From an uncultured SAR324 cluster bacterium (GTDB taxonomy: Bacteria; SAR324; NAC60-12), in NCBI GenBank assembly GCA_902513935.1, contig CABXOR010000001.1:18306-82305 (forward strand): a stretch of DNA of 64,000 nucleotides, in the 5' to 3' direction. The notes under the pieces were generated by a model, which was not told the origin of the DNA, did not search any database, and saw only the letters and a list, made by a program, of their open reading frames with translations. Positions 4,656 through 39,544 of the stretch are shown here, piece by piece (positions within the stretch are counted from its first letter, which is position 1; each line of letters begins with the position of its first letter). The position numbers and the translations under genes were made by a program.

Positions 4656-4693
4656 AAAAATGATATAGAAAGATGTTATTTAACTAATAAAAT

Positions 4694-5773: not shown

Positions 5774-6835
5774 TCAATTGCCACCCCAAATATCTCCAAT
5801 TGTATAACCTTCTGGAAAAGGATCATTTGCATCTAAAACATATTGAGCAAAACCAGTAATCCATGCTCTACCAGTAATTGTTGGTACTACTGCGTCATAA
5901 TTTCCTACTTTAGTTTTTCTCAAAAGCCTACCTGTAAAAGTAGTACCTAAAATACCTTCATGAATAAAATCTGTATCTAGCTCTAACTTGTTTTTTTCAA
6001 ATAGTGATGCCATTTTTGCGCAGGTACCTGTGCCACAAGGAGATCTATCTATTACCCCTTTCCATGTTTCTCGGCGGTCCCAATCTAACTTCCCAGTGGA
6101 TACTACAACGGCGTTTTTCAATGTTGCATCAGGATTTTCCGGTGGGCCTGAAACCACTGCTATTGTTATCCCAGAAATATCTTTATTCTCAGGATGTACA
6201 ACTGGCAAATTTTCTGAAGCTATTGCTTTTACCATTTCCGCAATACGAACAATTTCACCCCCATTTTCTGGACTTAATTTCAAGCCTAATTCTTCTGAAT
6301 CTAAAATAACATAAAACATTCCCCCGTAAGCTACATCAACTCTCACTTCTCCAATTTCAGGCACAAGTATAGATTTATTAGTATAAACTGAAAATGCTGG
6401 AACATTTTCAAATGTCACATTTTTTGCCTTACCATTGCTAACTTCTGCTTTTATTGATATTAATCCTGCTGGAGTATCCAATTTAAACTCAGTGAATGGT
6501 TCATTTACCTCTACCATTCCAGTTTCAATTAGAGTAGTAACAACACAAATAGTATTGGTTCCAGACATTCCTGGATATTCAGTTTGTTCCATAATAACAA
6601 AGCCAGCTACAGCTTCAGGATTATTTGATGGTAAAATCAAGTTACAGTTTGCAGCAGGGTATCCTCTTGGTTCGCGAAGCATTCTTAAACGTAATGAATC
6701 TGCTTTTTGAGATAAATGTTGCATTTTTTCAAACATTGATTCACCAGGAACATCAAGGATTCCCCCAACAATTACTCTTCCTGGTTCTCCGCAGGCGTGA
6801 AGATCTACTGCATGTATCATATTTGAGATCTTCAT
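5774..6835 (-). CDS. Proline racemase-family enzyme, Ser/Cys type (4-hydroxyproline epimerase or dehydratase)
   Basis: 353-residue proline racemase-fold cytosolic enzyme. In the racemase, two cysteines act as acid and base. Here the first sits in the M-S-G-T-N-T motif and is Ser91; the second is Cys267 in D-R-S-P-C-G-T-G-T. Ser/Cys pairs are known among 4-hydroxyproline 2-epimerases and trans-3-hydroxyproline dehydratases, whereas true proline racemases use Cys/Cys. With the DapA-family gene and TRAP importer in the same run, the likely job is the first step of hydroxyproline breakdown. The gene overlaps the stop of the upstream aldo/keto reductase by one base (TAATG), showing tight coupling. 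Epimerase and dehydratase cannot be told apart from sequence alone. Confidence 0.88.
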   Translation of the reverse strand: MKISNMIHAVDLHACGEPGRVIVGGILDVPGESMFEKMQHLSQKADSLRLRMLREPRGYPAANCNLILPSNNPEAVAGFVIMEQTEYPGMSGTNTICVVTTLIETGMVEVNEPFTEFKLDTPAGLISIKAEVSNGKAKNVTFENVPAFSVYTNKSILVPEIGEVRVDVAYGGMFYVILDSEELGLKLSPENGGEIVRIAEMVKAIASENLPVVHPENKDISGITIAVVSGPPENPDATLKNAVVVSTGKLDWDRRETWKGVIDRSPCGTGTCAKMASLFEKNKLELDTDFIHEGILGTTFTGRLLRKTKVGNYDAVVPTITGRAWITGFAQYVLDANDPFPEGYTIGDIWGGN

Positions 6836-7881
6836 TATTTAATCTCCCAGTCTATATTTGTTTTCATCCATTCTGCAGTATTATGAAAGTTGGCGATTAC
6901 ACTTCCAGGAGGCACTAAATTGTCACATGCAATACGAATATCATCACTCAATTTCATACCAGCAACTGGTAATAGATTTTCTAAATGAGCTAATGTTCTT
7001 GGTCCTATAAGTGGAGCAGCAATACCCACTTGATCCTTTACCCACAAAATTGCAAGTTGTGCTGCAGTTAAGCCTATCTGTTCAGCTAATTTTGAAAAAA
7101 TAATACCTACTTCAATCCCTTTTTTAGTTACACGATCAGCATAAAACCCCCCTCTTAAGGAAGCCCGAGAATTTTCAGGATAATCATCAAAACTTTTATA
7201 TCGTCCTGCAAGAACACCCATGGCCATAGGTGCCCATGTAATCAGTCCTATTCCTTGTTTCTGACACATTGGTATTAGTTCATTTTCAATACGTCTATCT
7301 AATAAATTATATGGGGGTTGTTCAAAAACTACTCGAGAATATCCTTTTAATTCACTGCACATAATTGATTCCATAACCATCCAAGAGGGATGTGTTGAGC
7401 AGCCAATGTAACGTACTTTCCCTTGACGAACTAGGTCGGTCATTGCCCCAAGTATTTCATCAAAATGTATTTCAGGAGAAGGACGATGCAATTGATAAAT
7501 ATCTATGTAGTCGGTTTGTAATCGTTTGAGAGATTTTTCGCAAGCTCTAATTATGTTTAATCTACTATGTCCGTGATCATTAGGGCCAGAAAGTGATGGG
7601 TCGTCTATTGAATAGCCAGGGCGTCTTTTCCCGTGATCTACTTTTGTTGCTATTAAAACATGATCTCTTTTCTTAGATCTTTTTAGAGTTTTGCCAATTA
7701 TTTTTTCACCTTCTCCATCTGCGTATACATCACCAGTATCTACCAAGTTGATTCCAGCATCAATTGAAGCTTCCAGGATAATAGATGATTCTTTTTCAGG
7801 TGTTGGATCTGCAAAATTATCAGTCCCAAGCGCCAAACAAGATATTTTAAGTCCTGTTTTACCAATTAATCTATAGTCCAT
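6835..7881 (-). CDS. Aldo/keto reductase
   Basis: 348-residue NAD(P)H-dependent aldo/keto reductase with a (beta/alpha)8 fold. The catalytic tetrad is intact: Asp48 and Tyr53 (D-T-G-D-V-Y), Lys80 (I-A-T-K) and His132 (Y-Q-L-H-R-P). The protein belongs to the long AKR group related to YajO/Tas and to L-glyceraldehyde 3-phosphate reductases. It is the first gene of the minus-strand hydroxyproline-like run and is translationally coupled to the racemase-family gene. Its place suggests reduction or oxidation of an aldehyde or ketone intermediate; the substrate is unknown. Confidence 0.9.
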   Translation of the reverse strand: MDYRLIGKTGLKISCLALGTDNFADPTPEKESSIILEASIDAGINLVDTGDVYADGEGEKIIGKTLKRSKKRDHVLIATKVDHGKRRPGYSIDDPSLSGPNDHGHSRLNIIRACEKSLKRLQTDYIDIYQLHRPSPEIHFDEILGAMTDLVRQGKVRYIGCSTHPSWMVMESIMCSELKGYSRVVFEQPPYNLLDRRIENELIPMCQKQGIGLITWAPMAMGVLAGRYKSFDDYPENSRASLRGGFYADRVTKKGIEVGIIFSKLAEQIGLTAAQLAILWVKDQVGIAAPLIGPRTLAHLENLLPVAGMKLSDDIRIACDNLVPPGSVIANFHNTAEWMKTNIDWEIK

Positions 7882-25567: not shown

Positions 25568-26269
25568 CTATCGAATTTTTGCGGAATCCTGAATTGCTTT
25601 TTTGAGTATCTCAAAATTAAAGTCTTGTCTTTTACAAGCATCTAGTATGATCTTTTCTTTACGAATCATGAGATCGATCGCTGTCGGAAGTTTTTCCGCA
25701 AGTTCTGCTGGTATGACTACGGAGCCATGTCGGTCTGCATGGATCAGGTCATTGTGCTGAACATTCATTCCAAAAATGTTTACCGGTATGCCTGTTTCTT
25801 CTATGCGCACATAAGCGTGGGCTGGTCCAATTTTACCTGCCAGCACTTGAAATCCTGCTGAAAGGACATCAAGGTCCCGAACCGAGCCATTGGTAACCAC
25901 ACCAATAACCCCAAGTGCATTATGAATGTTTGAATTAACCTCTCCCCAGAAAGCCCCAAATCCCGGACTTTCATCAATATCCTGGATAACGCTGATGAAT
26001 GGTGCTGTTCCGGAAGACACATATTCGTAATAAGCTAAACTTCGATCACGTTTTGTATTTGGATCCACTTCAGAAGATGCTCTGATTGTTGCTGTTCGGG
26101 CATAACCGACAATCGGAGGTAGAGTGGTATCCGCACAAATCATCTGTTCGGTTGTAAAACAGCTGGTACGGAATTTCGAATCGAGGAGTTCAAGCGAATT
26201 CACGATTGTAGGTGTGTCATATTTGCTGAAAGTATTAAGCAAGCTTTCCGGGATTTGTTTCATCGGCAA
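25568..26269 (-). CDS. RraA-like family protein (possible keto-acid aldolase/decarboxylase)
   Basis: 233-residue protein of the RraA/4-hydroxy-4-methyl-2-oxoglutarate aldolase fold. The G-V-V-T-N-G-S-V-R-D-L-D segment (about residues 124-135) carries the conserved arginine-aspartate pair that binds Mg2+ and pyruvate in the aldolases, and N-D-L-I-H-A-D-R-H-G follows near 175. It lies at the end of a minus-strand run behind an SDR and an HpsN-type dehydrogenase, so a carbon-carbon cleavage or oxaloacetate-decarboxylase step is plausible. A role as RNase E regulator is unlikely in this setting. Confidence 0.82.
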   Translation of the reverse strand: MPMKQIPESLLNTFSKYDTPTIVNSLELLDSKFRTSCFTTEQMICADTTLPPIVGYARTATIRASSEVDPNTKRDRSLAYYEYVSSGTAPFISVIQDIDESPGFGAFWGEVNSNIHNALGVIGVVTNGSVRDLDVLSAGFQVLAGKIGPAHAYVRIEETGIPVNIFGMNVQHNDLIHADRHGSVVIPAELAEKLPTAIDLMIRKEKIILDACKRQDFNFEILKKAIQDSAKIR

Positions 26270-26305: not shown

Positions 26306-27061
26306 TTACACTGCGGTCCAGCCTCCATCAACCTTGATGGTAGAACCGGTCACCATTTTACTCATGTCAGAGGCAAGAAACAAAACCGCGTCTGCCACAT
26401 CCTCTGTCTGTCCAACGTGTCCAAGCGGGATTCGACTTAAAATATAATCTTTGAACTCATTTTCTTCCATAAAGGGCCTTGTCAAATCCGTCTCAATGAA
26501 AGTTGGGCTTACCGTGTTCACCCTGATTCCATTTTCTGCCAAATCCAAAGCCATGCTTTTGCAAAAACCTTCCATTGCATGTTTGGATGCGCAGTAGACA
26601 GTTCTGTTTCGTCCTCCAACGATGCCCATCTGACTTGAGATGTGGATTATGGATCCTCTGATTCCCGATTCAACCATACCTCTTGCCACAACCTGGGCAA
26701 CAAAAAAGGCTGATTTGACATTAAGGTCCATGACTTTGTCGAACCTCTCTTCAGTGACCTCACAGAAGTGTTCCGGAATGTTGTTGCCTGCGTTGTTGAC
26801 AAGAATGTTAAAATGACCTAACTTTTTTAAATTATTAACAGCTTCCATTGAGCAAATATCGGCCGCATGAACTGAGGCTTTTCCTCCGGACTTAATGATT
26901 TCATCCCTGACCTGTTCCAGCTGTTTTTCTGTCCTGGCAGTCAGCACAACTTCCGCTCCTGCAGCGGCCAGGGTTTTGGCACAAGCTTCACCAATACCTC
27001 TGCCTGCGCCTGTAACCAGAGCCCGCTGTCCCCGTAAATCGTAAACTTTTGCGGTTGTCAC
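26306..27061 (-). CDS. SDR-family oxidoreductase
   Basis: 251-residue classical SDR with intact motifs: T-G-A-G-R-G-I-G at residues 17-24, N-N-A-G near 88, active-site serine in H-I-S-S-Q-M-G, Y-C-A-S-K near 154 and a C-terminal V-D-G-G-W. It is similar to gluconate 5-dehydrogenase and 3-oxoacyl reductase types. Its start overlaps the stop of the HisD-family gene by four bases (GTGACAACC context on the minus strand), showing tight coupling. In sulfonate pathways HpsN works with SDR partners; that is a possible, unproven role here. Confidence 0.92.
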
Positions 27062-28344
27062 GCAGCTTCTCCACTATATCGTCTAACCCTGAGATCTGCC
27101 TGTTCCTGGTGTCCGGCAAATCCTTCAAGCTTGCATAATCTTGAACAGTATTCTCCCACCTTTACACTGGCTTCGTTGTTGAGAATTTTCTGGTAGGTGC
27201 ATGTTTTGAGAAATTTCCCAACCCAGAGACCTCCGGTGTATCGTGCGGCTTTTAATGTAGGCAAAGTATGGTTTGTACCTATGACCTTGTCTCCGTATGA
27301 AACATTGGTACGAGGCCCAAGGAAAAGTGCGCCGTAATTTATCATGTTTTCCAGAAACCAGTCATCTTTTTTGGTCATTACCTGAACATGTTCGAAGGCG
27401 AGTTCATTTGCTATCTCAAGCATTTCATCATAAGAGTCTGCTACAATAATCTGTCCATAGTTTTGCCATGCAGGCGCTGCCGTGTCTCTGGTTGAAAGAG
27501 TTTTCATCTGTTTCTCTACCTCCTCCAATGTCTGCCTGGCAAGATTCATGGAATTTGTTAAAAGGACAGCAGGAGACGTTGGACCGTGTTCGGCCTGGCC
27601 CAACAGGTCTGTAGCGCACATTTCTCCGTCTACTGTTTCATCTGCTATGACAAGAGTTTCGGTTGGACCGGCAAAAAGATCAATACCGACTCGTCCATAT
27701 AGCTGCCTCTTAGCTTCTGCTACATAGGCATTGCCAGGACCAACTAGCATGTCCACAGCAGGTATCGTTTCAGTTCCTAATGCCATGGCCGCAACTGCCT
27801 GGACACCTCCAATCACGAAAATATCGTCTGCTCCTCCAAGATGCTGAGCTGCAACGATGGCATCAGATGGGCGTCCCTCATAAGGGGGAGCGCAGGTAAT
27901 GATTTCCTTCACACCTGCAACATTTGCAGTTACAACTGACATGTGAGCAGAGGCTACCATTGGGAACTTACCTCCTGGTACATAACTCCCTACACGGTTG
28001 GTCGGAATATTCCTGTGACCAAGAATCACTCCCGGAAGCGTTTCCTCTTCAACGTCTTTCATGGAATCCCGCTGAATCTGGGCGAAGTTCCTGATCTGCT
28101 CCTGTGCAAAGCGGATGTCACCAATTGTTTGTGCATCAAGTCTATCAATACAGGATTGGATTTCTTTTTCAGAAAGCCGGAATTCATCCGGTGACCAGTT
28201 GTCAAAACGTTTCGAAAGTTCCCTGACGGCTGTGTCTCCTCGTTTGTCAATATCCTCAAGCAATTTTTCTACAGTATCACGTATTTGTATCTGGGCTTCG
28301 TCCCGTTGTTCTTCTGAAATTGCTTCCTTTATCCAGTTTGCCAT
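27058..28344 (-). CDS. HisD-family dehydrogenase, HpsN (sulfopropanediol dehydrogenase) type
   Basis: 428-residue Zn-dependent, NAD-linked four-electron alcohol dehydrogenase of the histidinol dehydrogenase family. Conserved features are Y-V-P-G-G-K-F-P at residues 121-128, V-G-P-G-N-A-Y-V-A near 201, D-L-F-A-G-P-T-E-T near 222, Zn ligands Gln250 and His253 (G-Q-A-E-H-G-P), and the Glu316-His317 catalytic pair. The long C-terminal part after the [12 protein letters not shown] motif and the absence of his genes point to the HpsN-like branch, which oxidises 2,3-dihydroxypropane-1-sulfonate to sulfolactate, or to a related polyol dehydrogenase. Substrate assignment is tentative. Confidence 0.88.
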
Positions 28345-28408: not shown

Positions 28409-29383
28409 TTAACTCATGGAATAGCTGCTGATTTGCATCCATAGTGAGATCTCATCAATCGCATTATATTCCCTTACAACCAAACCTTCCTGCATTTCAG
28501 CATGGGTCATGGCCATTATTACCACAGGAGCACCTGTTGGTTCGCCGAAACTTCCAAATCCGGTATGTTTAGCGGAATAGCTCCAGCGTAAAGCAATTCT
28601 GGTGTTTTTTCCTTCCTCCTCATTGAGAATCCAATGATGAACCCTGAAACTTCCTTTTGGGAAAGATTTAGTGTAGCCTGTGAGAAATTCAATAAGCTGA
28701 TCACGGCCATAAATAACTTTTTCTTCAGGAGCATGAATCTGGCAGGCCCTGTTGTGTGATTTTTCTAGAGCGATGAATTCTGATTGCTCCCATACCGCCT
28801 GGTAAGTCTGAGCGAGATTTTTTGCTACTCCTGAAAGTGGTCCTGAGTCAGGAGGGCCTTCCCAGCGTTTAACGTAGCACTCAGCACTTGGAACTACATT
28901 CCCGGTCTCCTTTAGGTTTAAAGCCAACTGCTGGCCGAATTCACTGGGTTCGAGTCCAACCTGTTTCACAATGGCGGACTGATCTCGCACCATCCACTCA
29001 TCAATCACCTTGTTTCCCCTGCAGACGCAGTCGGCGATGACTCTGTAATTAACTTTTGAACCTGTAGGAGATCCACAAAAGCCGTCGCCAAGATGTGTTG
29101 CTGAACTGAGGATCCTGTGTGATGAATAGAATGTGCCTGGCTCGTCCTCAGAACCAATAACATCTTCTCCCAGCAACTCCCTGTCTGGAAACATCTGCAA
29201 GGTCTTGTAGGTGGAGCTAATTACATCTTCAACATTGTCTGAGACACTTGTGGGGGTCTTCACTGGAGCTTTTTCCCCATAATAATCTCTTATTCGTTCC
29301 ACTCCACGTTCCTCCCAGATACGATAAGTGATCTTGAGGATGTAATCTTTTAAATTCTTAAATTCTGAGTCAAATCCTTCCAT
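28409..29383 (-). CDS. Two-domain SnoaL/NTF2-like protein (divergent member)
   Basis: 324-residue soluble protein made of two NTF2-like (SnoaL, ester-cyclase-like) cone folds, about residues 20-150 and 185-320. No signal peptide is present. Folds of this kind bind hydrophobic or aromatic ligands and catalyse cyclisation, isomerisation or hydrolysis. It lacks the W-Y-G-P motif shared by the four other SnoaL-like proteins nearby, so it is the most distant member. It lies 22 bases after a broken permease gene and 64 bases before the HpsN-type gene on the same strand. The position parallels the SnoaL gene at 31.0 kb, which also follows a permease. Confidence 0.75.
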   Translation of the reverse strand: MEGFDSEFKNLKDYILKITYRIWEERGVERIRDYYGEKAPVKTPTSVSDNVEDVISSTYKTLQMFPDRELLGEDVIGSEDEPGTFYSSHRILSSATHLGDGFCGSPTGSKVNYRVIADCVCRGNKVIDEWMVRDQSAIVKQVGLEPSEFGQQLALNLKETGNVVPSAECYVKRWEGPPDSGPLSGVAKNLAQTYQAVWEQSEFIALEKSHNRACQIHAPEEKVIYGRDQLIEFLTGYTKSFPKGSFRVHHWILNEEEGKNTRIALRWSYSAKHTGFGSFGEPTGAPVVIMAMTHAEMQEGLVVREYNAIDEISLWMQISSYSMS

Positions 29384-29405: not shown

Positions 29406-29753
29406 TCATACCCTTACTGGACCTGCGGTCAAACCGTTGACTATCTGACGCTGGAAGAACATTAACAGCACAAAAAGAGGTAAAGTTGTTGATACAACTG
29501 CAGCAACTGCAGACATCACTTCACCTTCCTGTTGTGTTGATCCCAGAAAACTGGCTATCTTTGGTACCATAGTCTGGTTTTTCTGACTTAGAAGTATTGC
29601 TGTAACCGCAAAGTCATTGTAGGCAAGGAGGAATGAGAACAGGCCAGTAGTTATGAAAAAGAGCCACATCACCAGAATGATTACATGGCAAAAGGCTTGA
29701 AAACGATTACAACTGTCAACCAAGGAAATTTCATAAAGTTCTTTTGAGGAAGT
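29406..29753 (-). pseudogene. C-terminal fragment of an ABC transporter permease
   Basis: An open frame of about 116 codons bounded upstream by TAG at 29754-29756. It matches only the C-terminal third of the intact permease at 32.0-32.9 kb: K-E-L-Y-E-I-S-L-V-D-S-C-N-R-F-Q-A-F corresponds to K-E-L-D-E-S-G-M-I-D-G-C-S-H-F-Q-A-F. The later L-A-Y-N-D-F, M-V-P-K and Q-x-Q-I-x-x-G-L-T segments are also shared. The first four helices are missing, and the only in-frame start near the break is TTG at 29723, so it cannot make a working permease. Homology stops exactly where the repeated 34-bp element begins. Confidence 0.88.
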
Positions 29754-29757
29754 CTAG

Positions 29758-29791
29758 AAAAAATTATACGTAAATTTTGTAAACGAGATGT
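29758..29791 (+). repeat. 34-bp element, copy A (partner at 35607-35640)
   Basis: 30 of 34 bases match the stretch at 35607-35640, including AAAAAATTATA and TTGTAAACGA. In both places the element lies between an importer gene on the left (minus strand) and a SnoaL-like gene on the right (plus strand), in the same orientation. It is probably part of the divergent promoter of a duplicated cassette, possibly a regulator site. Confidence 0.7.
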
Positions 29792-29792
29792 T

Positions 29793-29939
29793 CAGCACTT
29801 CATGACGTCAGGATGGCATAGTATTAATACAATTCATGTCAATGAAAATTTGTTGGGTTATGACGCTTCAAGAAAAACCGTGACAAAGCGTGTGATGAAT
29901 TTTTATTTGTATGATAAAAGACTTTTTCGAGAGAACTGA
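29793..29939 (+). pseudogene. C-terminal fragment of a SnoaL-like gene, interrupted by a stop
   Basis: On the plus strand, the frame starting near 29793 encodes T-S-G-W-H-S-I-N-T-I-H-V and then M-N-F-Y-L-Y-D-K-R-L-F-R-E-N-stop. This aligns with the second domain of the 35.9-kb SnoaL-like protein (V-T-G-W-P-N-M-I-Q-T, then L-D-F-W-R-L-E-N-E-L-I-R-E-N-W). The invariant tryptophan codon of E-N-W is TGA (29937-29939), a one-base change from TGG. The remaining two thirds of the gene are absent. It is too short and degraded to be functional and is read as the right half of a collapsed cassette copy. Confidence 0.78.
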
Positions 29940-29991
29940 GTCCCACATGTTATTTTGCTCATTCCTGAACAAACTATGTATTTTGAAGAAT

Positions 29992-31017
29992 TTAGTTATC
30001 CTCAAATAATATTTCAATATCCACCGCTTTGAAAACGTCGTAATCAAGCTGTTTTAACATATCAACAAGATCAACGAATACCCAATTCTCGACAAGTTTA
30101 TTCCCTTCTCTTCTCCACCAATCTGAAATTCGACAAGTAAATTGTTGCCCTTTAGCTTCAATTCCTAACCATTCTTTACATAAATGTCCTCCGTGTGAAG
30201 GCCAACCGCCTGATGCAACGAAATTTCCTTCAGCAAATCTCGCAAAATGGCCTTTAACAGCTAAATCAAGCTTTGATCCTTTTTCACAAGTCATGGTTGT
30301 AGAAGATTTACGATAGGGATCAAAAACACTTTCATAGGGTAATTGAAAACGAGCAAAACCATCTACACCTATATAACTTCCATAGCCTGATGGACCATAC
30401 CACATCATATTTGGGTGCCAATATTTTCTCCAATATTGTTCTTTGGTATGAAGATTTCTAAGCATTTCTTCAACCATTACAAGGCTGGTTTTAGTTTCTT
30501 CTGAATTTTGAGCTTCTAATATAATCCCATCTGAAGTTATTGGACCAGGAATAAATCTCTCATCTCCCAAACTTTTAGTAAGCAACGGCCACTTGCCAAT
30601 TTGGCGAAGTAAATCAATTAAATCAAAAAATAAATAAGTTTCAACTGCTTGGCCATTTTGCATTCGATGAAACTCACCAAAACGTAAATACGTTAACTTA
30701 TTATTTGCTGGAATTCCCATCCAATCCTTTGCAAATGTTCCAACATAGTGACCAGAGCCTGTCACCCATTCTTCTTCATTAATAATTCCACCAAAAAGAA
30801 TATCTGTTCGTCGATAAAAGTCTGGAAAAGCATATAACATTGGTAAAAAAAATTTTTTTATAAGTTCTTCTGACCCATTGATTTCATTTATAGGATCTAC
30901 AATATTAATTATTGCATCCTTTTTAAAAAACTTATTAATTGCACTTTCATGGTTTTTTTGAGCATCGTATAAAAATGTATCACAAAAATATTTATAAATT
31001 TTTTTATTATTTTCCAA
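29992..31017 (-). CDS. Two-domain SnoaL/NTF2-like protein (member 2)
   Basis: 341-residue soluble protein with two tandem NTF2-like domains (about 10-165 and 185-335). Shared motifs with the three other main members are D-W-M-G-I-P-A-N-N-K then L-R-F-G-E-F-H-R-M in domain 1, and M-W-Y-G-P-S-G-Y-G, A-E-G-N-F and V-E-N-W-V-F-V-D in domain 2. Family knowledge suggests a polyketide-cyclase or ester-cyclase-like small-molecule enzyme; no substrate is known. It lies 4 bases after the 31.0-kb paralogue, at the end of the minus-strand importer run. Nothing is seen between its stop and the SnoaL remnant. Confidence 0.82.
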   Translation of the reverse strand: MENNKKIYKYFCDTFLYDAQKNHESAINKFFKKDAIINIVDPINEINGSEELIKKFFLPMLYAFPDFYRRTDILFGGIINEEEWVTGSGHYVGTFAKDWMGIPANNKLTYLRFGEFHRMQNGQAVETYLFFDLIDLLRQIGKWPLLTKSLGDERFIPGPITSDGIILEAQNSEETKTSLVMVEEMLRNLHTKEQYWRKYWHPNMMWYGPSGYGSYIGVDGFARFQLPYESVFDPYRKSSTTMTCEKGSKLDLAVKGHFARFAEGNFVASGGWPSHGGHLCKEWLGIEAKGQQFTCRISDWWRREGNKLVENWVFVDLVDMLKQLDYDVFKAVDIEILFEDN

Positions 31018-31021
31018 CTTA

Positions 31022-31996
31022 CTATTTCAATTTAGCAAATAAATCGTAGTCAATTTGTAACAAAAGATCTGGAACATCAACAAACACCCAATTTTCTACT
31101 AATAAATTTCCTTCACGACGCCACCAATCGCATACACGCATAGAAACATCTTTGTTTGTAGGTTCTTGATCAAGAAAACGCTTTACATGTTTACCGTTTA
31201 CTGACAACCAACCACCATTGGTGGCATAATTGCCATCTGCTACACGAATAAAATCTTTTATAATAGTATTATTATTAGATAACTCTACCGTCCATCCTTG
31301 AAAACAAGATTCAAATGGTACCTGAAAATTTTCAAAATTTTTGATCCCAATATAAGATCCAAATCCAGCAGGGCCGTACCATAACATGTTTTCGTGCCAA
31401 TAAGGATACCACTCTTTGTTTGGAGTATTTAATTTTGATAGCATTTTTTCTACAATTGTAAGCGTTTTGCTCGATTCAATCGGATCACTTTCTCCATAAA
31501 CTAAACCATCATGCGTTGCAGGTCCAGGTATGTGACCTGAATAACCGGGGCTAGGAGATAGTGGCCATATTCCAAGCTCCATCATCAATTCTGGTAAGTC
31601 ATAAAAGATATAAGACTCAACACATTTGTTATTCTGCATCCGATGAAACTCACCAAACCGTATGTAAACAAGTCTATTATTTGCTCTCATCCCCAACCAA
31701 TCATTGATCATTTTTCCAGCAAAATAACCTGTAGATGTAATCCAATCATTGCCCTCATAATTTCCTCCTATAACTATATAGTCACTTCGATAAAGCCCTT
31801 CAAATGCTTTCATCATTGGTTTTAAAACCTTATCTATATAACCTTGCGAACCTTGAATTTTATTAATTGGATGAACAACATTTATTGATGCTTCTTCAGA
31901 AAAAAAATTATGTACTGCATTTTTGTAATTAGTTTCATTTGGGTAAGAAAACTCTCTAAGGTAGGATTTATATAATTGTTTATTTTCTAATATCAT
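31022..31996 (-). CDS. Two-domain SnoaL/NTF2-like protein (member 3)
   Basis: 324-residue paralogue of the 30.0-kb protein. Domain 1 has D-W-L-G-M-R-A-N-N-R then I-R-F-G-E-F-H-R-M; domain 2 has L-W-Y-G-P-A-G-F-G-S-Y-I-G, A-D-G-N-Y-A and V-E-N-W-V-F-V-D. A conserved W-R-R-E-G-N-L-L precedes the last motif in both. The gene starts 5 bases after the permease at 32.0 kb and is followed within 4 bases by member 2, so both are cotranscribed with the importer. Keeping two copies in tandem suggests heteromeric or sequential action on the imported compound. Confidence 0.82.
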   Translation of the reverse strand: MILENKQLYKSYLREFSYPNETNYKNAVHNFFSEEASINVVHPINKIQGSQGYIDKVLKPMMKAFEGLYRSDYIVIGGNYEGNDWITSTGYFAGKMINDWLGMRANNRLVYIRFGEFHRMQNNKCVESYIFYDLPELMMELGIWPLSPSPGYSGHIPGPATHDGLVYGESDPIESSKTLTIVEKMLSKLNTPNKEWYPYWHENMLWYGPAGFGSYIGIKNFENFQVPFESCFQGWTVELSNNNTIIKDFIRVADGNYATNGGWLSVNGKHVKRFLDQEPTNKDVSMRVCDWWRREGNLLVENWVFVDVPDLLLQIDYDLFAKLK

Positions 31997-32001
31997 TCTA
32001 T

Positions 32002-32883
32002 TTACCCTTTAACTGCTCCAGTAGTCAATCCACTTATAATTTGTTTTTGAAAAAACATAACAACCATAAATAAAGGTGCTGTTGCAGAAACCACTGATGA
32101 AACAGCCCACATCATATTTCCTTCATGTTGATTGGTACCTAAATAACTTGCAAGTTTGGGGACCATCGTATGGTTTTCATAACTTAACAACATTGCTGTA
32201 ACAGTGAAATCATTATAGGCAAGCATCAGACTAAATAATCCTGCTGTTATCACCCCAGGCCACATGACAGGCATTATGATATATCTAAATGCTTGAAAAT
32301 GTGAGCACCCATCTATCATGCCACTTTCATCTAGCTCTTTTGGAACGGTTTTAAAAAAAGAATATAATAACCATAAAGTGAATGGTTGATTAATCGCAAC
32401 AAGAACGATAATAGTTGTTGGAAGAATACCCCAAATGTTTAATTGAAAAAAGGGGAAAAGATATCCTGAAACAAGCGTAATATGTGGCATAGCACGAAAA
32501 ACAAGTGCAGCTATTAATATCCAAAATGCATATCGATAAGGTGAGCGTGAGAGAGCATACCCTCCAAGAGTTCCTAGAAATAAAGAGATCGTAACAACAA
32601 AGAAAGTTACAATTACTGAATTTCTTGCTGCATACAAAAATTCTCCTTCAATCCAAGCTTCTCTAAATGCATTTAAAGTGTATCGTCCGCCAGTCTCAAT
32701 AATTGTATGAAAACCTGAGATTACATACCACCAATCAGATCTTGAAAAAAAATCCTCACGAACCTTAAATGATCCTAAGAAAGTCCAGATAAATGGAAAA
32801 GCTGCTATAATAAGCCAGGCTAAAATAAATATACTATTTATAATTAATAATTTTTTAGATTTTTTGTCTGCTAAAGTTGCCAT
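32002..32883 (-). CDS. ABC transporter permease (MalG type) of the SnoaL cassette
   Basis: 293-residue CUT1-type permease with six predicted helices, an EAA loop E-L-D-E-S-G-M-I-D-G-C-S and the family ending I-I-S-G-L-T-T-G-A-V-K-G. It is 6 bases from the partner permease gene upstream. A second, truncated gene for the same subunit lies at 29.4 kb. No ATPase gene accompanies this importer; one of the MsmX-like ATPases at 15.6 or 57.4 kb is a likely energiser. Confidence 0.92.
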   Translation of the reverse strand: MATLADKKSKKLLIINSIFILAWLIIAAFPFIWTFLGSFKVREDFFSRSDWWYVISGFHTIIETGGRYTLNAFREAWIEGEFLYAARNSVIVTFFVVTISLFLGTLGGYALSRSPYRYAFWILIAALVFRAMPHITLVSGYLFPFFQLNIWGILPTTIIVLVAINQPFTLWLLYSFFKTVPKELDESGMIDGCSHFQAFRYIIMPVMWPGVITAGLFSLMLAYNDFTVTAMLLSYENHTMVPKLASYLGTNQHEGNMMWAVSSVVSATAPLFMVVMFFQKQIISGLTTGAVKG

Positions 32884-32889
32884 GTTTTA

Positions 32890-33918
32890 TTATCTTGATT
32901 CACCAAATTCACGCCATGTTTTAATAAGTACTGGAGTTAAAAGTATTCCAACCATGATGATAGTTAAAATAGATGTTGAAGCCGCAGAACCAAAATTCAT
33001 TACCTCAATATTTCGAAGATCATTATAAATTAACCATGAGAATGATTGAGCACTAGCCTCAGCACTAAATCCAAGTATCGGTTCGAAAACTCTAATATTA
33101 TCCATCATTGAAATAAGAGCAATAAAAACTGCTACTGGGTACAGATGTGGAATAACAACATGTCGAATTCTTTGCCAGCGATCTGCCCCATCTATTATCG
33201 CAGCTTCTATGGGATCTTGTGGAACTGTTTGAAGGGCAGCATAAAAAACTATAAAGGCAAAAGGAGAATGGTGCCATATTCCATAAGTTATTAATGTAAT
33301 CCAAGTAAGATTAGTTGAAGCTTTTAAAGATAGATAAGGATCATTGAATAAATCTTGAATTGTTGATCCAATTATACCTTCTGCGTCAATCATCCAGAAT
33401 AATACTAGAGAACCCATGAGAGGTGTAACAATCATTGGCAAGATTGTTACGAAAATAGTTGGACCTTTTATCTTCTGTGACAAAGCATTAATGCAAAGCG
33501 CTATAATAAAACCTAAACATATGACAAAAGGTGTAACAAATAACGTATAAGTTAATGTAAATATTAATGCCTTATAAAAAGGTAAATTAAAAAAAGTGCT
33601 AGAAAATTCGCTAAATGTTTTTGAATTACTCCATCCTTCATACAATTCTTTAAATGCTAAATGATTTCTATCGATATAAGTTTTAAAACCATTAAATCTC
33701 CCCAAAGGTTTTTCTTTATTCAGAGCAGCATACGCTTCAACATCTACACCTATCTCTTTTTTACAGCCAAATGGATCACATATCTCCATTTCAATTGTAG
33801 GTTTTTGATGTTCAATAAAAAGTGATTGAACAAAAATTGAAACAATAGGAATTGCAATGAACAAAACCATTGCTACACAAGTAGGAAGCATGAACCAAAA
33901 AAAAGTTTTATGTTTCAC
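32890..33918 (-). CDS. ABC transporter permease (MalF type) of the SnoaL cassette
   Basis: 342-residue permease, longer than usual because of an insertion of about 85 residues between the first and second helices (about residues 38-120). This periplasmic loop holds a cysteine pair, C-D-P-F-G-C, that could form a disulfide. The EAA loop reads I-E-A-A-I-I-D-G-A-D. The extra loop may contact the binding protein. It is separated from the binding-protein gene upstream by a terminator and a spacer of about 278 bases that otherwise shows no features. Confidence 0.9.
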   Translation of the reverse strand: MKHKTFFWFMLPTCVAMVLFIAIPIVSIFVQSLFIEHQKPTIEMEICDPFGCKKEIGVDVEAYAALNKEKPLGRFNGFKTYIDRNHLAFKELYEGWSNSKTFSEFSSTFFNLPFYKALIFTLTYTLFVTPFVICLGFIIALCINALSQKIKGPTIFVTILPMIVTPLMGSLVLFWMIDAEGIIGSTIQDLFNDPYLSLKASTNLTWITLITYGIWHHSPFAFIVFYAALQTVPQDPIEAAIIDGADRWQRIRHVVIPHLYPVAVFIALISMMDNIRVFEPILGFSAEASAQSFSWLIYNDLRNIEVMNFGSAASTSILTIIMVGILLTPVLIKTWREFGESR

Positions 33919-34151
33919 GTAAGCAACTCTATCAGAAATTTATATGTTGAAATTGGTTGAATCCTTGAATATTCTTGAAGTGTCGAAAACTACCGTACTC
34001 TACCTTGCAACCTGAGCAAGAGAAAGTACAGGAATTATAAATAGGCTACTGAGGAGCAGAGCGTTGGCCACGGTTGTACATCTAGCGTTTTTAGTTTAGA
34101 AAGAACAGATGTAACCCAAAATCATGAATTTGGTCAGGTTGGAAAAAGTAA

Positions 34152-34182
34152 AAAAGGTGGAAATATTATCTTTCCACCTTTT
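34152..34182 (-). terminator. Strong hairpin terminator after the binding-protein gene
   Basis: Twelve-base perfect inverted repeat AAAAGGTGGAAA/TTTCCACCTTTT (34152-34163 and 34171-34182) with a seven-base loop, followed on the minus strand by a T-rich tail, 15 bases after the stop of the binding-protein gene. It should end or strongly reduce transcription into the two permease genes, giving excess binding protein. Confidence 0.85.
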
Positions 34183-34196
34183 AGCATTTTTTTAAT

Positions 34197-35432
34197 TTAC
34201 AGGAAGCCTTTTTCTTTAGCTTTACCTCTATAAGCAGCTTCAGTGTCTGCAAGTGCTTGTTGAGCTGTTTCTTTGCCTTGTAAGAAATCAACAATTTCTG
34301 AGCCAAGTGCTCCATGCATAAGTGACATGTGAGGCAACATAGGATAAGGTTTTGCTCCCATCTTAGCTGCAGCAAGTACTCCAACTGATTTTGGACCAGG
34401 TTTAAATCCCTCCACTAGCCACACTGCTTGATCTGATGCATCATTTGCCATTTTCTTAGAAGTTGCTGCATGAACAAGTACTTGAAAGCTAGCTTCCGCA
34501 TCTTTATCTGATCTATTTGTTGCTAAAGTAAAGCCATCCCACCATAGAGTGGCTGCTGGAATAGAGCCTCCTCCAACAGTTGCGGGTGCTCCTAATTTTG
34601 TTGCAGCAGTAATTGCCGGATCACCTTCATCATCAAGCAAAGTCCCTGATCTTGAAGCCCATAAAGTCATAAGACCAACTTTTCCTGATTCCCACTCAAC
34701 TTTGATAGCTTCTGAGTCATGAGTTAGGAAATCTGGATTGCTATAACCAGCAAGTGTTTTTAACATCTTAAGTGTTGCAATGCCTTTCGGGTTGTTGATA
34801 TTTGGCTCTGCAGAACCAGATTTGAAAAACTCTCCACCATGACCGAGAAACATGTTTACAAATTCTTCTGCTAAATTCCATCCAGCTTTATAAGCTGCAG
34901 CATATGGATTTAGTAATTTACCTGAAGAACGCATTTTTTCAGCTGCTGCTACCACTTCTTCATAAGTTTTTGGTACAGCTATACCAAGTTCATTAAGAAT
35001 ATCTTCACGGTAATACAAATGCTGTGTATTTGCCATAAAAGCAACAGCCATCACTTTTCCATTTATTGTAATTAACTGTGATTTTTGTAAGCCTTCTCCG
35101 TATTTAGCAACAAGGTCATCCATTGGTCTAATTAAACCTTCATTCATTAAAGGCACAATAGAACTGTTAGCACCAATTCTAGCTGAATATTCTGCAGGAT
35201 TAGCCGATAGAGCTGCCATTGCTAAATTGCTATGTTCAGATGTGTGATTCACTCTGAAATCAGCACCAGCTCCTGCACATGCTTTTGCTGTATCCGTGTA
35301 TGTACGTAACGCAGGAAAATCATTTGCCAAAATATTTATTGATCCACTAGTTATCCCACAAGCAGCATAGGTTGTATGCACTAATAGAAACATGAATGTT
35401 GATGTTAGGGTTATTTTAGATAGCATTTTCAT
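34197..35432 (-). CDS. ABC transporter substrate-binding protein of the SnoaL cassette
   Basis: 411-residue family 1 solute-binding protein. The signal peptide (M-K-M-L-S-K-I-T-L-T then a hydrophobic core) is probably cut after T-Y-A, leaving A-C-G-I. Four bases upstream of a good spacing lies AAGGAGAG. The mature part has the expected L-Y-Y-R-E-D-I-L near residue 140, P-K-T-Y-E-E-V near 153 and W-W-D-G-F-T-L-A-T near 297. The ligand is unknown; four SnoaL-like proteins encoded on both sides suggest it is the precursor of their substrate. It is transcribed divergently from the SnoaL gene at 35.95 kb. Confidence 0.9.
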   Translation of the reverse strand: MKMLSKITLTSTFMFLLVHTTYAACGITSGSINILANDFPALRTYTDTAKACAGAGADFRVNHTSEHSNLAMAALSANPAEYSARIGANSSIVPLMNEGLIRPMDDLVAKYGEGLQKSQLITINGKVMAVAFMANTQHLYYREDILNELGIAVPKTYEEVVAAAEKMRSSGKLLNPYAAAYKAGWNLAEEFVNMFLGHGGEFFKSGSAEPNINNPKGIATLKMLKTLAGYSNPDFLTHDSEAIKVEWESGKVGLMTLWASRSGTLLDDEGDPAITAATKLGAPATVGGGSIPAATLWWDGFTLATNRSDKDAEASFQVLVHAATSKKMANDASDQAVWLVEGFKPGPKSVGVLAAAKMGAKPYPMLPHMSLMHGALGSEIVDFLQGKETAQQALADTEAAYRGKAKEKGFL

Positions 35433-35951
35433 GATCTCTCTCCTTTATGATGGGGGTTATTAAAAGGGGCTTAATTTAATGGCAACCCCCAATGATTAAT
35501 TGATCTGGAATGTTTAATACAAACAATTCTTCCACCAATCTGTTTAGACATAGAATGTGAATTATACAAAGGTATTCATTTTATGCAAGAAAAATATTGC
35601 AGATATAAAAAATTATATGTAATTATTGTAAACGATATGTAGTTCCATCAAAAAATGTTTCGTAAATTCATGTAAATCTAGGAAAAAATAACATATCGTG
35701 AAAATATGGAAAAGGATCGCCATTGAAGTATAAACAGGTCTAAATTAATCAAATTTAATACAATTTCTGAAGTATGATATGAAAGGATTTCACTCACCTC
35801 AGTCAGAAATGAAGAAAAACTGTATGTTGTTGAATCAATAGTAAAGGTTGAGAGGATTTTGATATGTGAGAAATATATATATAAAAAATGAAATTTGTTG
35901 CAGTTATTTTCAATGTTAAGAATTTTTTTTCCTATTGGTAAAGGAGTTAAT
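35433..35951. promoter_or_regulatory. Divergent promoter region of the SnoaL/ABC cassette
   Basis: About 520 AT-rich bases between the binding-protein gene (minus) and a SnoaL-like gene (plus). It contains copy B of the 34-bp repeat at 35607-35640 and an AAAGGAG ribosome-binding site at 35940-35946 for the rightward gene. Several open frames on both strands here look like chance AT-rich sequence. No regulator gene is present. Confidence 0.6.
35607..35640 (+). repeat. 34-bp element, copy B (partner at 29758-29791)
   Basis: Matches copy A at 30 of 34 positions with the core TTGTAAACGA identical. It lies 175 bases upstream of the binding-protein start and about 312 bases upstream of the rightward SnoaL start. 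It may be an operator for a cassette-specific regulator or simply conserved promoter DNA. Confidence 0.7.
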
Positions 35952-37001
35952 TTGGATAGGCACACAAAGAATAAAGAACTGATTTCTGCTTTGAGAATGG
36001 CAATGTACGATTTCAGCGAAAGTAGTGTACGCAAAGTACTTGATAGGCTTTTTATTTCAGAGACCGTATTACGCCTTTGCTATCCACTTGGAGAGAAAGT
36101 TGGAGTAGATAATTTTTACATGGATGTTTTTGCTCCACTTCTTTTGGCTTTACCTGATTTAGAGCGGCGTGACACTATTGTGATGGCTGGACCAACTCAA
36201 GAAGGTACTGATTGGGTAGGTTGCTGTGGTTATTACACAGGAACATTCAGTAAGGCATGGTTGGACATTCCACCGACAGGGCATCAAGTTGCCATGAGAT
36301 TCCACGAGTTCTACCGCTTTGAAGATGACAGAGTGACCGAAGTACAGGCTATATGGGACATCCCTGAGGTCATGATGCAGGCGGGAGCTTGGCCAATGGC
36401 TCCTAGTCTTGGTCGTGAATGGCAGGTTCCTGGACCTGCAACGCAAGATGGAATTATACAAGGTCCCTATGATGAATCAAGTAGCTCAGCAACCTGCCAG
36501 TTAATAATTGACATGCTTACCGCAATGAAGAGGCATCCTTTAGAGGGAGGGCCTGAAGTAATGGAAATGAATAAATTTTGGCACCCAAAAATGAACTGGT
36601 ATGGTCCCTCTGGTATCGGAACAGGCCGAGGTATAGAAGGATTTCGAAATTGGCATCAGATTCCTTTTCTTGCAGCCATGCCGGACCGAGGTCAGTTTGT
36701 TGATCAGATTACGAACCATTTTTTTGGTGATGGAGATTATGTAGGAGTTACAGGTTGGCCAAACATGATACAGACTATGTCTGATGGAGGCTGGATGGGT
36801 ATTGCTCCGTCAGGAAAGAGAATTACTTTGCGAAGTTTGGATTTCTGGAGACTGGAAAATGAACTGATCCGAGAAAACTGGGTTCTGGTAGATTTGCTTG
36901 ACGTCTATGACCAGATCGGTGTTGATGTCTTTGCCAGAATTCGTGAGTTCAATAAGGTACGAAGAGGTTTTGTTCCTGAGACTGGTGTTGCACTGAAATA
37001 G
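35952..37001 (+). CDS. Two-domain SnoaL/NTF2-like protein (member 4)
   Basis: Protein of 349 residues if it starts at TTG 35952, which follows AAAGGAG by five bases. An earlier in-frame TTG at 35895 would add 19 AT-coded residues with no ribosome-binding site. Two NTF2-like domains are seen: domain 1 with A-W-L-D-I-P-P-T-G then M-R-F-H-E-F-Y-R-F, and domain 2 with N-W-Y-G-P-S-G-I-G-T, G-D-G-D-Y-V-G-V-T-G-W-P and R-E-N-W-V-L-V-D. It is the closest relative of the broken fragment at 29.8 kb. It is transcribed away from the importer and 9 bases before member 5. Confidence 0.82.
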   Translation: MDRHTKNKELISALRMAMYDFSESSVRKVLDRLFISETVLRLCYPLGEKVGVDNFYMDVFAPLLLALPDLERRDTIVMAGPTQEGTDWVGCCGYYTGTFSKAWLDIPPTGHQVAMRFHEFYRFEDDRVTEVQAIWDIPEVMMQAGAWPMAPSLGREWQVPGPATQDGIIQGPYDESSSSATCQLIIDMLTAMKRHPLEGGPEVMEMNKFWHPKMNWYGPSGIGTGRGIEGFRNWHQIPFLAAMPDRGQFVDQITNHFFGDGDYVGVTGWPNMIQTMSDGGWMGIAPSGKRITLRSLDFWRLENELIRENWVLVDLLDVYDQIGVDVFARIREFNKVRRGFVPETGVALK

Positions 37002-37010: not shown

Positions 37011-38018
37011 ATGAAAAGCTATCAAGATCAAAAATCATTGATTTTATCATTTTATGATGAGCTAGAAGCAGCAAATGCAGACAGTGTTGGAAAGGTCATC
37101 AGTCAGTTTACAAACCCTGACTTTCAATGGTACGGTGTCTACCCGTTTAACGAGCAGAATGGCGGAGATGCGGTAGCAAAAGTTTTCTGGATCCCTTTTC
37201 TCTCTGCCTGGTCTAATGTTAAGCGCAGGCAGGACGTTTTTCTGGCAGGTACCAGTGAGATTGACAATACTGACTGGGTTATCAGCATGGGACACTTTAT
37301 GGGCCTTCTGGATGGAAATTGGTTAGGTTTTCCTGCCAGCCGAAAAATAGCTTTCCTGCGTTATGCTGATTTCAATTGCATTAAAGATGGTAAAATAATA
37401 ATAAGCAGTTTTTTCTGCGATCTAATTGGCTTCATGCATCAATTGGGCATCAATCCCCTACCTCCTCAAACGGGCGCTTCTTTCATTTATCCCGGTCCAA
37501 GAACACATGACGGACTATTATTTGAACCTCAGGACCAGAGAGAGTCTCAGAAGACTCTTGAATTGGTAAACCGAATGATAGGCGATCTTACAGATCTTAA
37601 TAAAAATGAAAATGACTGCCCCCCTCCAGATTTGCTAACAAAAACTTGGCACGATGATATGATCTGGTACGGTCCAGCTGGTATTGGAGCATCTTACACT
37701 ATTCCGCGATACCAGGAACAACACCAGTACCCATTCAGGAGAGGGCTGAAAAATAAGGTTTTTAATGGCCACATCTGCCGATTTGCTGAGGGTAACTATG
37801 CTGGTTTCTTTGGTTGGCCCAATCTGACCAACACGGCTACAGGTGGTTTTTTGGGGCTGCCTGCGAGTGGTACTGCTGCAGATATGAGGGTTGTGGATAT
37901 CTACCGCCGGCAAGGAGAAAAACTCTCTGAAAACTGGGTGTTGATTGACCTGCCTTGGTGGTTAAAACAGCAAGGAGTCGATGTTCTAGAAAGAACAAAG
38001 AAAATTATTAATAACTAA
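37011..38018 (+). CDS. Two-domain SnoaL/NTF2-like protein (member 5)
   Basis: 335-residue paralogue with domain 1 motifs N-W-L-G-F-P-A-S-R then L-R-Y-A-D-F-N and domain 2 motifs I-W-Y-G-P-A-G-I-G-A, A-E-G-N-Y-A-G-F-F-G-W-P and S-E-N-W-V-L-I-D. The histidine of the E-F-H-R motif found in members 2 and 3 is lost here. It forms an operon pair with member 4 and converges on the PLP-enzyme gene with a 25-base gap. Sequence drift between the pairs on either side of the importer suggests they act on different intermediates. Confidence 0.82.
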   Translation: MKSYQDQKSLILSFYDELEAANADSVGKVISQFTNPDFQWYGVYPFNEQNGGDAVAKVFWIPFLSAWSNVKRRQDVFLAGTSEIDNTDWVISMGHFMGLLDGNWLGFPASRKIAFLRYADFNCIKDGKIIISSFFCDLIGFMHQLGINPLPPQTGASFIYPGPRTHDGLLFEPQDQRESQKTLELVNRMIGDLTDLNKNENDCPPPDLLTKTWHDDMIWYGPAGIGASYTIPRYQEQHQYPFRRGLKNKVFNGHICRFAEGNYAGFFGWPNLTNTATGGFLGLPASGTAADMRVVDIYRRQGEKLSENWVLIDLPWWLKQQGVDVLERTKKIINN

Positions 38019-38043: not shown

Positions 38044-39219
38044 TCAATACTGTAAAGCCTGTTCAAGATCTTCAATTAAGTCCTCCATCGATTCGATACC
38101 AACGGACAGACGTATAAGACCATCCACTAAGCCTATTTTCTCCCTGCGTTCTAGTGGAATAGCTGCATGTGTCATGGATGCTGGATGTTGAATTAGGCTC
38201 TCCACTCCTCCAAGACTGACCGCAAAATGAAACAAATTGCAACGTTGAAGTACAGTATCTGCTCGTTTAAGACCTCCTTCTAAAACTATCGTGATGATTG
38301 AGCCAAACCCATCCATCTGACTTTTTGCGATTTCGTATCCAGGATGATCTTTTAACCCCGGATAGTTTATAGATGCAATCCCAAGTCGAGATTGGTTTTC
38401 AAGCAAAAAGTTTGCAATACACTCTGCATTATAGAAATGCCTCTCCATCCGTACCGGGAGGGTTTTTAAAGATCTTAGCAATGTGGCGCAGTCGTTGGGA
38501 CTTAAGACCGAGCCCAAAGCATTCTGAAGAAATCGGAGTTGATCTACCATACCTTCCGGAGCATAGCCTGAAATAGCCGCTACACCGGCTAACAAATCCG
38601 AATGACCATTCAGGAATTTGGTGGCTGAATGAACTACCATATCTATCCCATGTTCAAGGGGTCTTTGGCAATATGGCGAGGCAAAAGTGTTGTCACACAC
38701 GCTAATTGCTTTAATCGATTTGGATAAAGCAGCTATTTTTTCCAGATCAACGATTTGCAATAGAGGATTAGAAGGTGTTTCAAACCAGAGCATCTTGGTT
38801 TCTTCTTTAATCGACTTACGTACTGAATCCAAATCAGAAAAATCGACAAAACTTACTTGATGGCCGCTGGATCTTCCTCTCACATTTGCAAAGAGACGGT
38901 ATATTCCACCATAAAGATCATCGTGCACTACAAGATGTGAACCTGCATCCATTAATTCAAGGACAGTGGCTGCTGCTGCTAGACCAGATGGGAAAGCAAA
39001 CGCTGCTTGAGCTCCCTCTAAATCTGCAAGGCACGCCTCCAGAGTCAGACGGGTCGGATTAGCAGTTCTCGAATAGACAAAGCCCTTATTCTTACCAATA
39101 CCCTCCTGCACATAAGTCGATGCTGTATATACTGGTGCAATGATAGCTCCTGTTAGAGGGTCAGGTACCTGTCCGGCATGGATAGCTCTTGTGTTAAAAT
39201 TTCTATGCTTAGTGGCCAT
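38044..39219 (-). CDS. Cystathionine gamma-synthase/gamma-lyase family PLP enzyme
   Basis: 391 residues from the ATG at 39219, which gives the usual start A-T-K-H-R-N-F-N-T-R-A-I-H-A-G. An in-frame ATG 17 codons upstream adds non-conserved sequence. It is a fold-type I trans-sulfuration enzyme: PLP lysine Lys201 in H-S-A-T-K-F-L-N-G-H-S-D, phosphate-binding Y-S-R-T-A-N-P-T at 49-56, and D-N-T-F-A-S-P at 176-182. Such proteins make or break cystathionine, or release methanethiol or H2S. The MetE-like gene divergently upstream suggests sulfur amino acid or organosulfur metabolism. Synthase and lyase cannot be separated by eye. Confidence 0.9.
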   Translation of the reverse strand: MATKHRNFNTRAIHAGQVPDPLTGAIIAPVYTASTYVQEGIGKNKGFVYSRTANPTRLTLEACLADLEGAQAAFAFPSGLAAAATVLELMDAGSHLVVHDDLYGGIYRLFANVRGRSSGHQVSFVDFSDLDSVRKSIKEETKMLWFETPSNPLLQIVDLEKIAALSKSIKAISVCDNTFASPYCQRPLEHGIDMVVHSATKFLNGHSDLLAGVAAISGYAPEGMVDQLRFLQNALGSVLSPNDCATLLRSLKTLPVRMERHFYNAECIANFLLENQSRLGIASINYPGLKDHPGYEIAKSQMDGFGSIITIVLEGGLKRADTVLQRCNLFHFAVSLGGVESLIQHPASMTHAAIPLERREKIGLVDGLIRLSVGIESMEDLIEDLEQALQY

Positions 39220-39544
39220 GATTGTGTTTAAAAATAAAATTTGGATTGGTAATGAATTATTAAGAATCATTGCTTGTATGCATAACTACATCATCCAAGT
39301 AATTTGAGTCAAGTTTTAATCAAATTCAAACATTTGGTTATTTTTAAATAAAACAGTAATTATTAATTATGGAATGAACAAAAATGATATTTTTACTGGT
39401 AAATTTATTAAGAAGATATCAACATGACATACGTATACAATGGAATTCACTATAAAATTTTCTTATAAAAAGTTTGATACGCCGATATATAATAGTATTC
39501 TTCAGACGAACGATTAAAGAACAAAAGAAAGGAGAAAAATAAAT
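39220..39544. promoter_or_regulatory. Divergent intergenic region between PLP enzyme and MetE-like gene
   Basis: About 325 AT-rich bases driving genes in both directions. An AGGAG ribosome-binding site (near 39531) serves the rightward gene. I see no clear riboswitch, operator palindrome or RNA gene. Confidence 0.5.

What the first reader, a model, noticed from the sequence alone, without database searches (positions are those of the whole stretch)
29406..37001. Collapsed second copy of the SnoaL/ABC cassette
Left of the intact cassette lie, in the same order and orientation, a permease C-terminus (29406-29753, minus), a 34-bp element 30/34 identical to one in the intact divergent promoter, and a SnoaL C-terminus (29793-29939, plus) ending where TGG became TGA. 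The intact cassette runs permease, permease, binding protein (minus), 34-bp element, SnoaL (plus). This is what is left if a second copy lost the interior between mid-permease and mid-SnoaL. Protein divergence suggests an old duplication or two related acquisitions. The SnoaL gene at 28.4 kb matches by position only, not by close sequence.
Basis: partly seen in the sequence, partly recalled or inferred. Interest (0 to 1): 0.72.

Follow-up and report, generated by a model that had tools for sequence, protein, structure and literature searches.

The report
Relic of a displaced transporter operon
The broken pieces are real, but they look like the remains of a different, resident sugar-type transporter module that decayed in place beside an AT-rich one of another lineage, rather than a collapsed duplicate of that neighbour; related sequences carry the same scar.

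Summary
In detail: a permease C-terminus (29406-29753, minus), a promoter-like element (E1, 29755-29792; 32/38 identical to E2 at 35604-35641) and a SnoaL C-terminus (plus) lie side by side. The "second copy" reading does not. The permease piece is 95/111 identical to a full-length metagenomic permease but 67/114 to its neighbour, and trees keep them apart (borderline p-AU). The SnoaL piece fits a separate subfamily (D, 42.6 bits; 15.1 for that of the SnoaL gene at 35.9 kb). Of 121 loci it finds 13; in all 13 the match is divergent from a binding-protein gene, about 3.9 kb from the matching permease, and 11 have HisD and/or SDR downstream. So the remnant is most likely the resident transporter half of the SDR-HisD operon, shrunk from about 3.9 kb to 42 bp between the pieces. 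The intact cassette (GC3 0.19-0.25; ten flanking genes 0.29-0.46) is of another lineage, with nearest genomes in an AT-rich alphaproteobacterial order. Eleven protein clusters share the junction, and three run on into S30, so the arrangement is inherited. Only E looks duplicated. How the cassette arrived is unproven. Ordinary in kind, well documented.

The parts
29406..29753 (-). C-terminal ~115 aa of an inner-membrane ABC permease (BPD_transp_1), 5' part deleted; in-frame stop just upstream (29754-29756)
29755..29792 (+). E1, promoter-like element (safe core 29764-29792), direct repeat of E2
29793..29939 (+). C-terminal part of a subfamily-D SnoaL gene (divergent partner of SBP in relatives), ending in TGA; faint similarity to ~29966
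28409..29383 (-). S28, SnoaL-clan gene of its own subfamily; taken as resident from composition, but in the 13 D-type relatives this type does not stand between permease and HisD
27058..28344 (-). HisD-like dehydrogenase, taken as resident operon
26306..27061 (-). SDR oxidoreductase, taken as resident operon
25568..26269 (-). RraA-like gene, same run (name from recall; relatives by tblastn only)
29992..31017 (-). S30, SnoaL-like, AT-rich block (GC3 0.21)
31022..31996 (-). S31, SnoaL-like, AT-rich block (GC3 0.25)
32002..32883 (-). perm2, intact permease, AT-rich block (GC3 0.23)
32890..33918 (-). perm1, intact permease, AT-rich block (GC3 0.19)
34197..35432 (-). SBP, solute-binding protein, AT-rich block (GC3 0.21)
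35604..35641 (+). E2, copy of the element in the intact divergent promoter
35895..37001 (+). S36, SnoaL subfamily of the gene beside SDR/HisD in relatives, not D; ORF as listed, true start uncertain
37011..38018 (+). S37, further SnoaL subfamily

Best explanation
The remnant is what is left of the resident transporter module of the SDR-HisD operon: [D SnoaL, divergent] | SBP' - perm1' - perm2' - ... - HisD - SDR. It lost about 3.9 kb by deletions on both sides of a short promoter piece (E1), leaving the perm2' C-terminus, E1 and the D C-terminus, and has gone on decaying. Beside it stands a different, AT-rich cassette (S30, S31, perm2, perm1, SBP) of another phylogenetic lineage, co-directional with S28-HisD-SDR, which probably took over the transport role (displacement in place). 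Shown: the identity of both fragments, their different kinship from the neighbouring cassette, the size of the loss relative to relatives, the inherited scar. Inferred: that the module belonged to the HisD-SDR operon next to it, that the AT-rich cassette was acquired laterally and replaced the resident in function, that one leftward transcript now runs from it through the scar into S28-HisD-SDR, and that E1 is a retained piece of the old promoter.
For: Fragment 95/111 identical to P0245 (293 aa), 84/111 to an Ensifer plasmid permease, 67/114 to perm2. Trees: perm2 in a 100/100 group without the fragment, fragment with P0121-P0136 (99/97); joining rejected at p-AU 0.048 and 0.030. SnoaL fragment: tblastn at E<=1e-5 on 95 loci finds 13, and all 13 are the gene divergent from SBP; profile bits D 42.6, S31 21.0, S36 15.1, S37 5.1, S28 -1.3. 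HisD and/or SDR downstream on the same strand in 11 of these 13; L048 and L079 end soon after the permease. Distance 3,814-4,052 bp in 13 of 13, 42 bp here (and coordinates). GC3 of the block 0.19-0.25, of ten flanking genes 0.29-0.46, permease fragment 0.38 and SnoaL fragment 0.375. perm2 kin: 72 of 162 genomes of one order at E<=1e-140, 74-80% identity, against 68% at best among the listed matches of 292 genomes of another order. Shared junction in 11 of the 341 proteins fetched; P0142 matches 169 of 196 aa over window 30035-29448, through the scar into the S30 3' end. The fragment's 87-aa ORF is listed for 14 contigs, with four 98-99% variants, so an assembly artefact is unlikely.
Against: The p-AU values are borderline and the trees have 115 columns. 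D clade support is 90, not starred, in a quick tree. In all 13 D-type relatives an ATPase gene follows perm2, and in none does an S28-type gene stand between the permease and HisD; there it lies beyond SDR or LacI where it is seen. The window differs in both. The 26 later loci, mostly of the AT-rich order and 17 of them short, gave no SnoaL-fragment hit at E<=1e-4. The AT-rich order's SnoaL neighbours differ from S30/S31, so no exact donor is known. Four of the 48 other window genes have GC3<=0.24, so low GC3 alone does not prove foreign origin. E is not upstream of SBP in 84 loci tested (best 19/29), which a promoter brought along by each cassette would not predict. The host is not identified and no contig of the undeleted close relatives could be read.
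Confidence: 0.78

Rival explanations
1. Old tandem duplication of the intact cassette followed by collapse of one copy.
For: Same order and orientation of permease, element, SnoaL; E1 and E2 32/38 identical in direct orientation.
Against: Permease fragment much nearer to outside permeases than to perm2; trees; SnoaL fragment in another subfamily than S36.
Confidence: 0.07
2. Promoter capture (a finer version of the best explanation, not exclusive of it): the AT-rich cassette entered by a single crossover at E, through a circle or tandem intermediate, so that E1 and E2 are the two copies of one crossover site flanking the insert, and the resident module decayed afterwards.
For: E1 and E2 are direct repeats flanking the insert; E is absent (best 19/29) upstream of SBP in 84 other loci, so it looks local to this lineage; the coding parts differ far more than E does.
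Against: E1-E2 similarity is limited to about 30-38 bp and E1 is cut on both sides by the deletions; the donor's promoter is unknown; D would have to be assigned to one side or the other.
Confidence: 0.25
3. E1 is not a retained promoter but a templated filler copied from E2 at a single deletion junction.
For: E1 exactly fills the gap between the two truncated genes; E resembles E2 more than the coding parts resemble each other.
Against: E1 has the right place and the right orientation between permease and SnoaL, which a filler would have only by chance.
Confidence: 0.1
4. Chance similarity or assembly artefact.
For: The SnoaL piece is weak against window proteins alone.
Against: Simulations, profile scores, 11 clusters with the same junction, the ORF listed for 14 contigs.
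Confidence: 0.01

Closest known systems
Displacement in place within operons (xenologous displacement, 'mosaic operons'; recalled; the terms were seen only in a search listing)
   Same: Part of an operon is replaced by a homologous module of another lineage while the neighbours stay
   Different: Here the displaced module's scar is still readable beside the newcomer and is shared by related sequences; functional replacement was not tested
Carbohydrate-type ABC uptake cassette with SnoaL-like 'ester cyclase' genes, e.g. Octadecabacter arcticus pOA238_160, Ruegeria conchae plasmid, Ensifer adhaerens plasmid AB
   Same: SBP, two permeases and SnoaL-like genes; in the Octadecabacter and Ensifer stretches HisD, SDR and LacI lie close by
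   Different: The window has two such modules of different lineages, one reduced to fragments, and no LacI or cassette ATPase beside it
Bacterial pseudogene decay by stepwise deletion (general knowledge)
   Same: Truncation, in-frame stops, related sequences at an earlier stage of decay
   Different: Nothing essential

Membership tests
Tandem duplicate of the intact cassette | Permease fragment is sister to perm2 | tested here: not met
   95/111 to P0245 against 67/114 to perm2; p-AU 0.048, 0.030
Tandem duplicate of the intact cassette | SnoaL fragment belongs to the subfamily of S36 | tested here: not met
   D 42.6 bits, S36 15.1 bits; S36 in a separate clade, 97 starred
Remnant of a D|SBP-perm1-perm2...HisD-SDR module | Divergent SnoaL of subfamily D | tested here: met
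   13 of 13 hits are the gene divergent from SBP; profile
Remnant of a D|SBP-perm1-perm2...HisD-SDR module | Permease followed by HisD/SDR on the same strand | tested here: met
   Window layout and 11 of 13 relatives; two end soon after the permease
Remnant of a D|SBP-perm1-perm2...HisD-SDR module | ATPase gene directly after perm2 (13 of 13 relatives) | tested here: not met
   Window ATPase matches lie at 15.6, 23.3 and 57.5 kb, 43-46% identity to the Ensifer one
Displacement in place | Newcomer module of different phylogenetic origin | tested here: met
   Trees, kinship, GC3
Displacement in place | Newcomer takes over the function | not testable with these tools
   Needs transport or transcript data

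The most novel reading that the evidence does not exclude
Promoter capture: an AT-rich transporter cassette from another lineage was spliced into a resident operon through a crossover at a ~30-bp promoter element, which now stands on both sides of it, and the resident transporter then collapsed; in related sequences the scar stays open as a fused frame of 111-199 aa that might be translated.
Probability: 0.22. Interest if true: 0.5.

Novelty: new member of a known kind. Interest (0 to 1): 0.3.

Why it matters
It is a well-resolved case of how a bacterium may swap the transporter half of a catabolic operon: displaced module, newcomer, scar and undeleted relatives can be told apart, and related sequences show an earlier stage of decay. 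It also warns that neighbouring fragments in the same order and orientation as an intact cassette need not be its duplicate.

Tried and rejected
Rejected: tandem duplicate. Rejected: E as the LacI-type operator of relatives. Palindromes upstream of SBP in 75 loci show a recurrent TTGCATACGTATGCAA-like site, but against a matrix of 25 hand-picked sites E2 scores 4.6 of 28.9, with one extra base allowed, rank 14 in the window, and E1 has no score of zero or more. The half motif TGTAAACG lies upstream of SBP in 2 of 78 loci. E-like sequence upstream of SBP: best 19/29 in 84 loci tested. The plasmid search with the remnant matched only the permease part (33 records).

Host: not found. HisD at E<=1e-205: 0 of 369 genomes drawn from the class of a Thioglobus locus and 0 of 299 from its phylum; the tool says an empty answer shows nothing without a known positive. 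Alphaproteobacteria were searched with HisD only in the handles (9 of 10 genomes match, best 66%) and in whatever one search drew. Viral contigs with P0124 gave nothing.

Papers: two searches aimed at the gene cluster (15 of 16 papers listed, titles and abstract starts seen; 0 papers) and two at the kind of event (8 of 41 listed; 8 of 11 listed). I recognised none as describing this remnant or the cluster's substrate; no paper was read, and one look-up failed.

Dropped rows and selection: the SnoaL tree left out the S28 clan (61 of 170 ORFs). The profiles left out three long-branch rows and four wrong-frame rows; the D profile is the 13-row clade, that is 12 of the 13 hit loci plus L015, and lacks L006. 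L015 has a D gene that the SnoaL piece did not hit at E<=1e-5. One search used 111 permease rows, a chosen 47. The 11 junction clusters were picked by a short motif among 341 fetched proteins, which are only the listed best hits of three searches. In this check the confidence of the best explanation was lowered from 0.80 to 0.78, because one search showed the ATPase in 13 of 13 relatives and the different place of S28.
Full report
Observation. The minus-strand permease piece (29406-29753) is 67/114 identical to the intact permease at 32002-32883. The element repeats at 35604-35641 with 32 of 38 bases identical, in direct orientation, and no other place in the window matches E1 in more than 24 of 38; 0 of 5000 simulations reach 32. 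The plus-strand SnoaL piece is weak against the window's own SnoaL proteins but clear against a profile of one subfamily.

What the permease piece is. It is not a close sister of the neighbouring permease. An Ensifer plasmid permease is 84/111 identical, and the metagenomic permeases P0245 and P0252 (293 aa), P0247 (261 aa) and P0248 (270 aa) are 93-95/111 identical. In a tree of 47 rows the intact window permease sits in a 100/100 group without the piece, while the piece nests among P0121-P0136. Forcing the piece together with the window permease or its group costs 27 log-likelihood units (p-AU 0.048, 0.030): a rejection, but a borderline one on 115 columns. The distances are the stronger evidence.

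What the SnoaL piece is. Among 95 loci (fetched) a tblastn search with the piece finds 13 at E<=1e-5, and in all 13 the match is the SnoaL gene that stands divergent to the solute-binding-protein gene; 26 later loci, mostly of the AT-rich order and 17 of them short, gave none at E<=1e-4. A profile of the 13-row clade of such genes (12 of the hit loci plus L015) gives 42.6 bits; profiles of the other SnoaL subfamilies give 21.0 (S31), 15.1 (S36), 5.1 (S37) and -1.3 (S28). The gene that holds the divergent place in the intact cassette, S36, belongs to another clade. So both pieces point to one module type, D | SBP-perm1-perm2-ATPase-...-HisD-SDR, and S28, HisD and SDR genes lie to the left of the remnant in the window. 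HisD and/or SDR are found downstream in 11 of the 13 loci; the other two (L048, L079) end soon after the permease. In the 13 relatives the distance between the two matched places is 3,814-4,052 bp; in the window it is 42 bp (and coordinates). Against this stand two differences: all 13 relatives have an ATPase gene after perm2, and none has an S28-type gene between permease and HisD.

What stands beside it. The genes S30, S31, perm2, perm1 and SBP have GC3 0.19-0.25; the ten flanking genes have 0.29-0.46, and the permease and SnoaL pieces 0.38. Four of the 48 other genes of the window are also at or below 0.24. The nearest genomes found for perm2 are in one order with 0.9-1.6 Mb genomes among the matches: 72 of 162 genomes match at E<=1e-140, 74-80% identical. 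The order is not named by the tool; it was reached as part of the class of L008's genome, which is recorded as an uncultured alphaproteobacterium. Nine loci read from it are 31-33% GC. Their SnoaL neighbours differ from S30 and S31, so the exact donor is not known.

The scar is inherited. A search with the permease piece lists the window's own 87-aa ORF with 14 contigs, and four 98-99% variants. Eleven of the 341 fetched protein clusters carry the same junction, the reverse of E1 fused to the permease C-terminus. P0142 matches the window over 169 of 196 residues from 30035 down to 29448, that is from the 3' end of S30 through the spacer, the SnoaL piece and E1 into the permease piece; P0241 (155 of 198) and P0242 (137 of 163) behave likewise. 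So S30, SnoaL piece, E1 and permease piece were most likely already side by side in a common ancestor. In these relatives the frame is open; in the window it has three stops in this stretch. Ascertainment must be borne in mind: only open frames are listed as proteins.

How it came about. Since E1 lies between the two truncated genes in the place and orientation of a divergent promoter, it is best read as a kept piece of the old promoter between two deletions. That E1 and E2 are so alike although the coding parts are not, and that E was not found upstream of SBP in 84 other loci (best 19/29), suggests that E itself was doubled locally, for instance by a crossover at E when the AT-rich cassette entered. 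This is an inference and could not be tested without contigs of undeleted relatives. The newcomer is co-directional with S28-HisD-SDR, so it may now drive them; that too is inferred.

Verdict. The fragments are real and more than chance; the 'collapsed duplicate' reading is replaced by 'relic of a displaced resident transporter module'. This is a known kind of event, documented here rather completely.

Noticed in passing
window 39425-39440: TTGTATACGTATGTCA (minus strand), a near-palindrome between CGL (38044-39270, minus) and a MetE-like gene (39545, plus), resembles the LacI-type palindrome TTGCATACGTATGCAA that recurs upstream of SBP in relatives; it ranks third in a matrix scan of the window.
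   Followed up: partly
window 564-7881: A second AT-rich stretch: four genes (starts 564, 1997, 5774, 6835) with GC3 <= 0.24 against a mean of 0.37 for the 48 genes outside the cassette.
   Followed up: no
L001-L083: A widespread cluster with several SnoaL-like proteins, HisD, SDR, LacI, cupin, MetE-like and RraA genes around a carbohydrate-type ABC transporter; two paper searches aimed at it gave nothing that I recognised as naming its substrate.
   Followed up: partly
L057 3830-4000: Read by eye, the frame here looks like an MttB-type methyltransferase close to a SnoaL gene, a hint at methylated substrates (the name is recalled, no family search done).
   Followed up: no
P0142, P0241, P0242: In related sequences the scar is an open frame of 169-199 aa that fuses sequence overlapping the S30 end, the antisense of the SnoaL piece and the permease C-terminus; P0142 stands for 111 member sequences.
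   Followed up: partly
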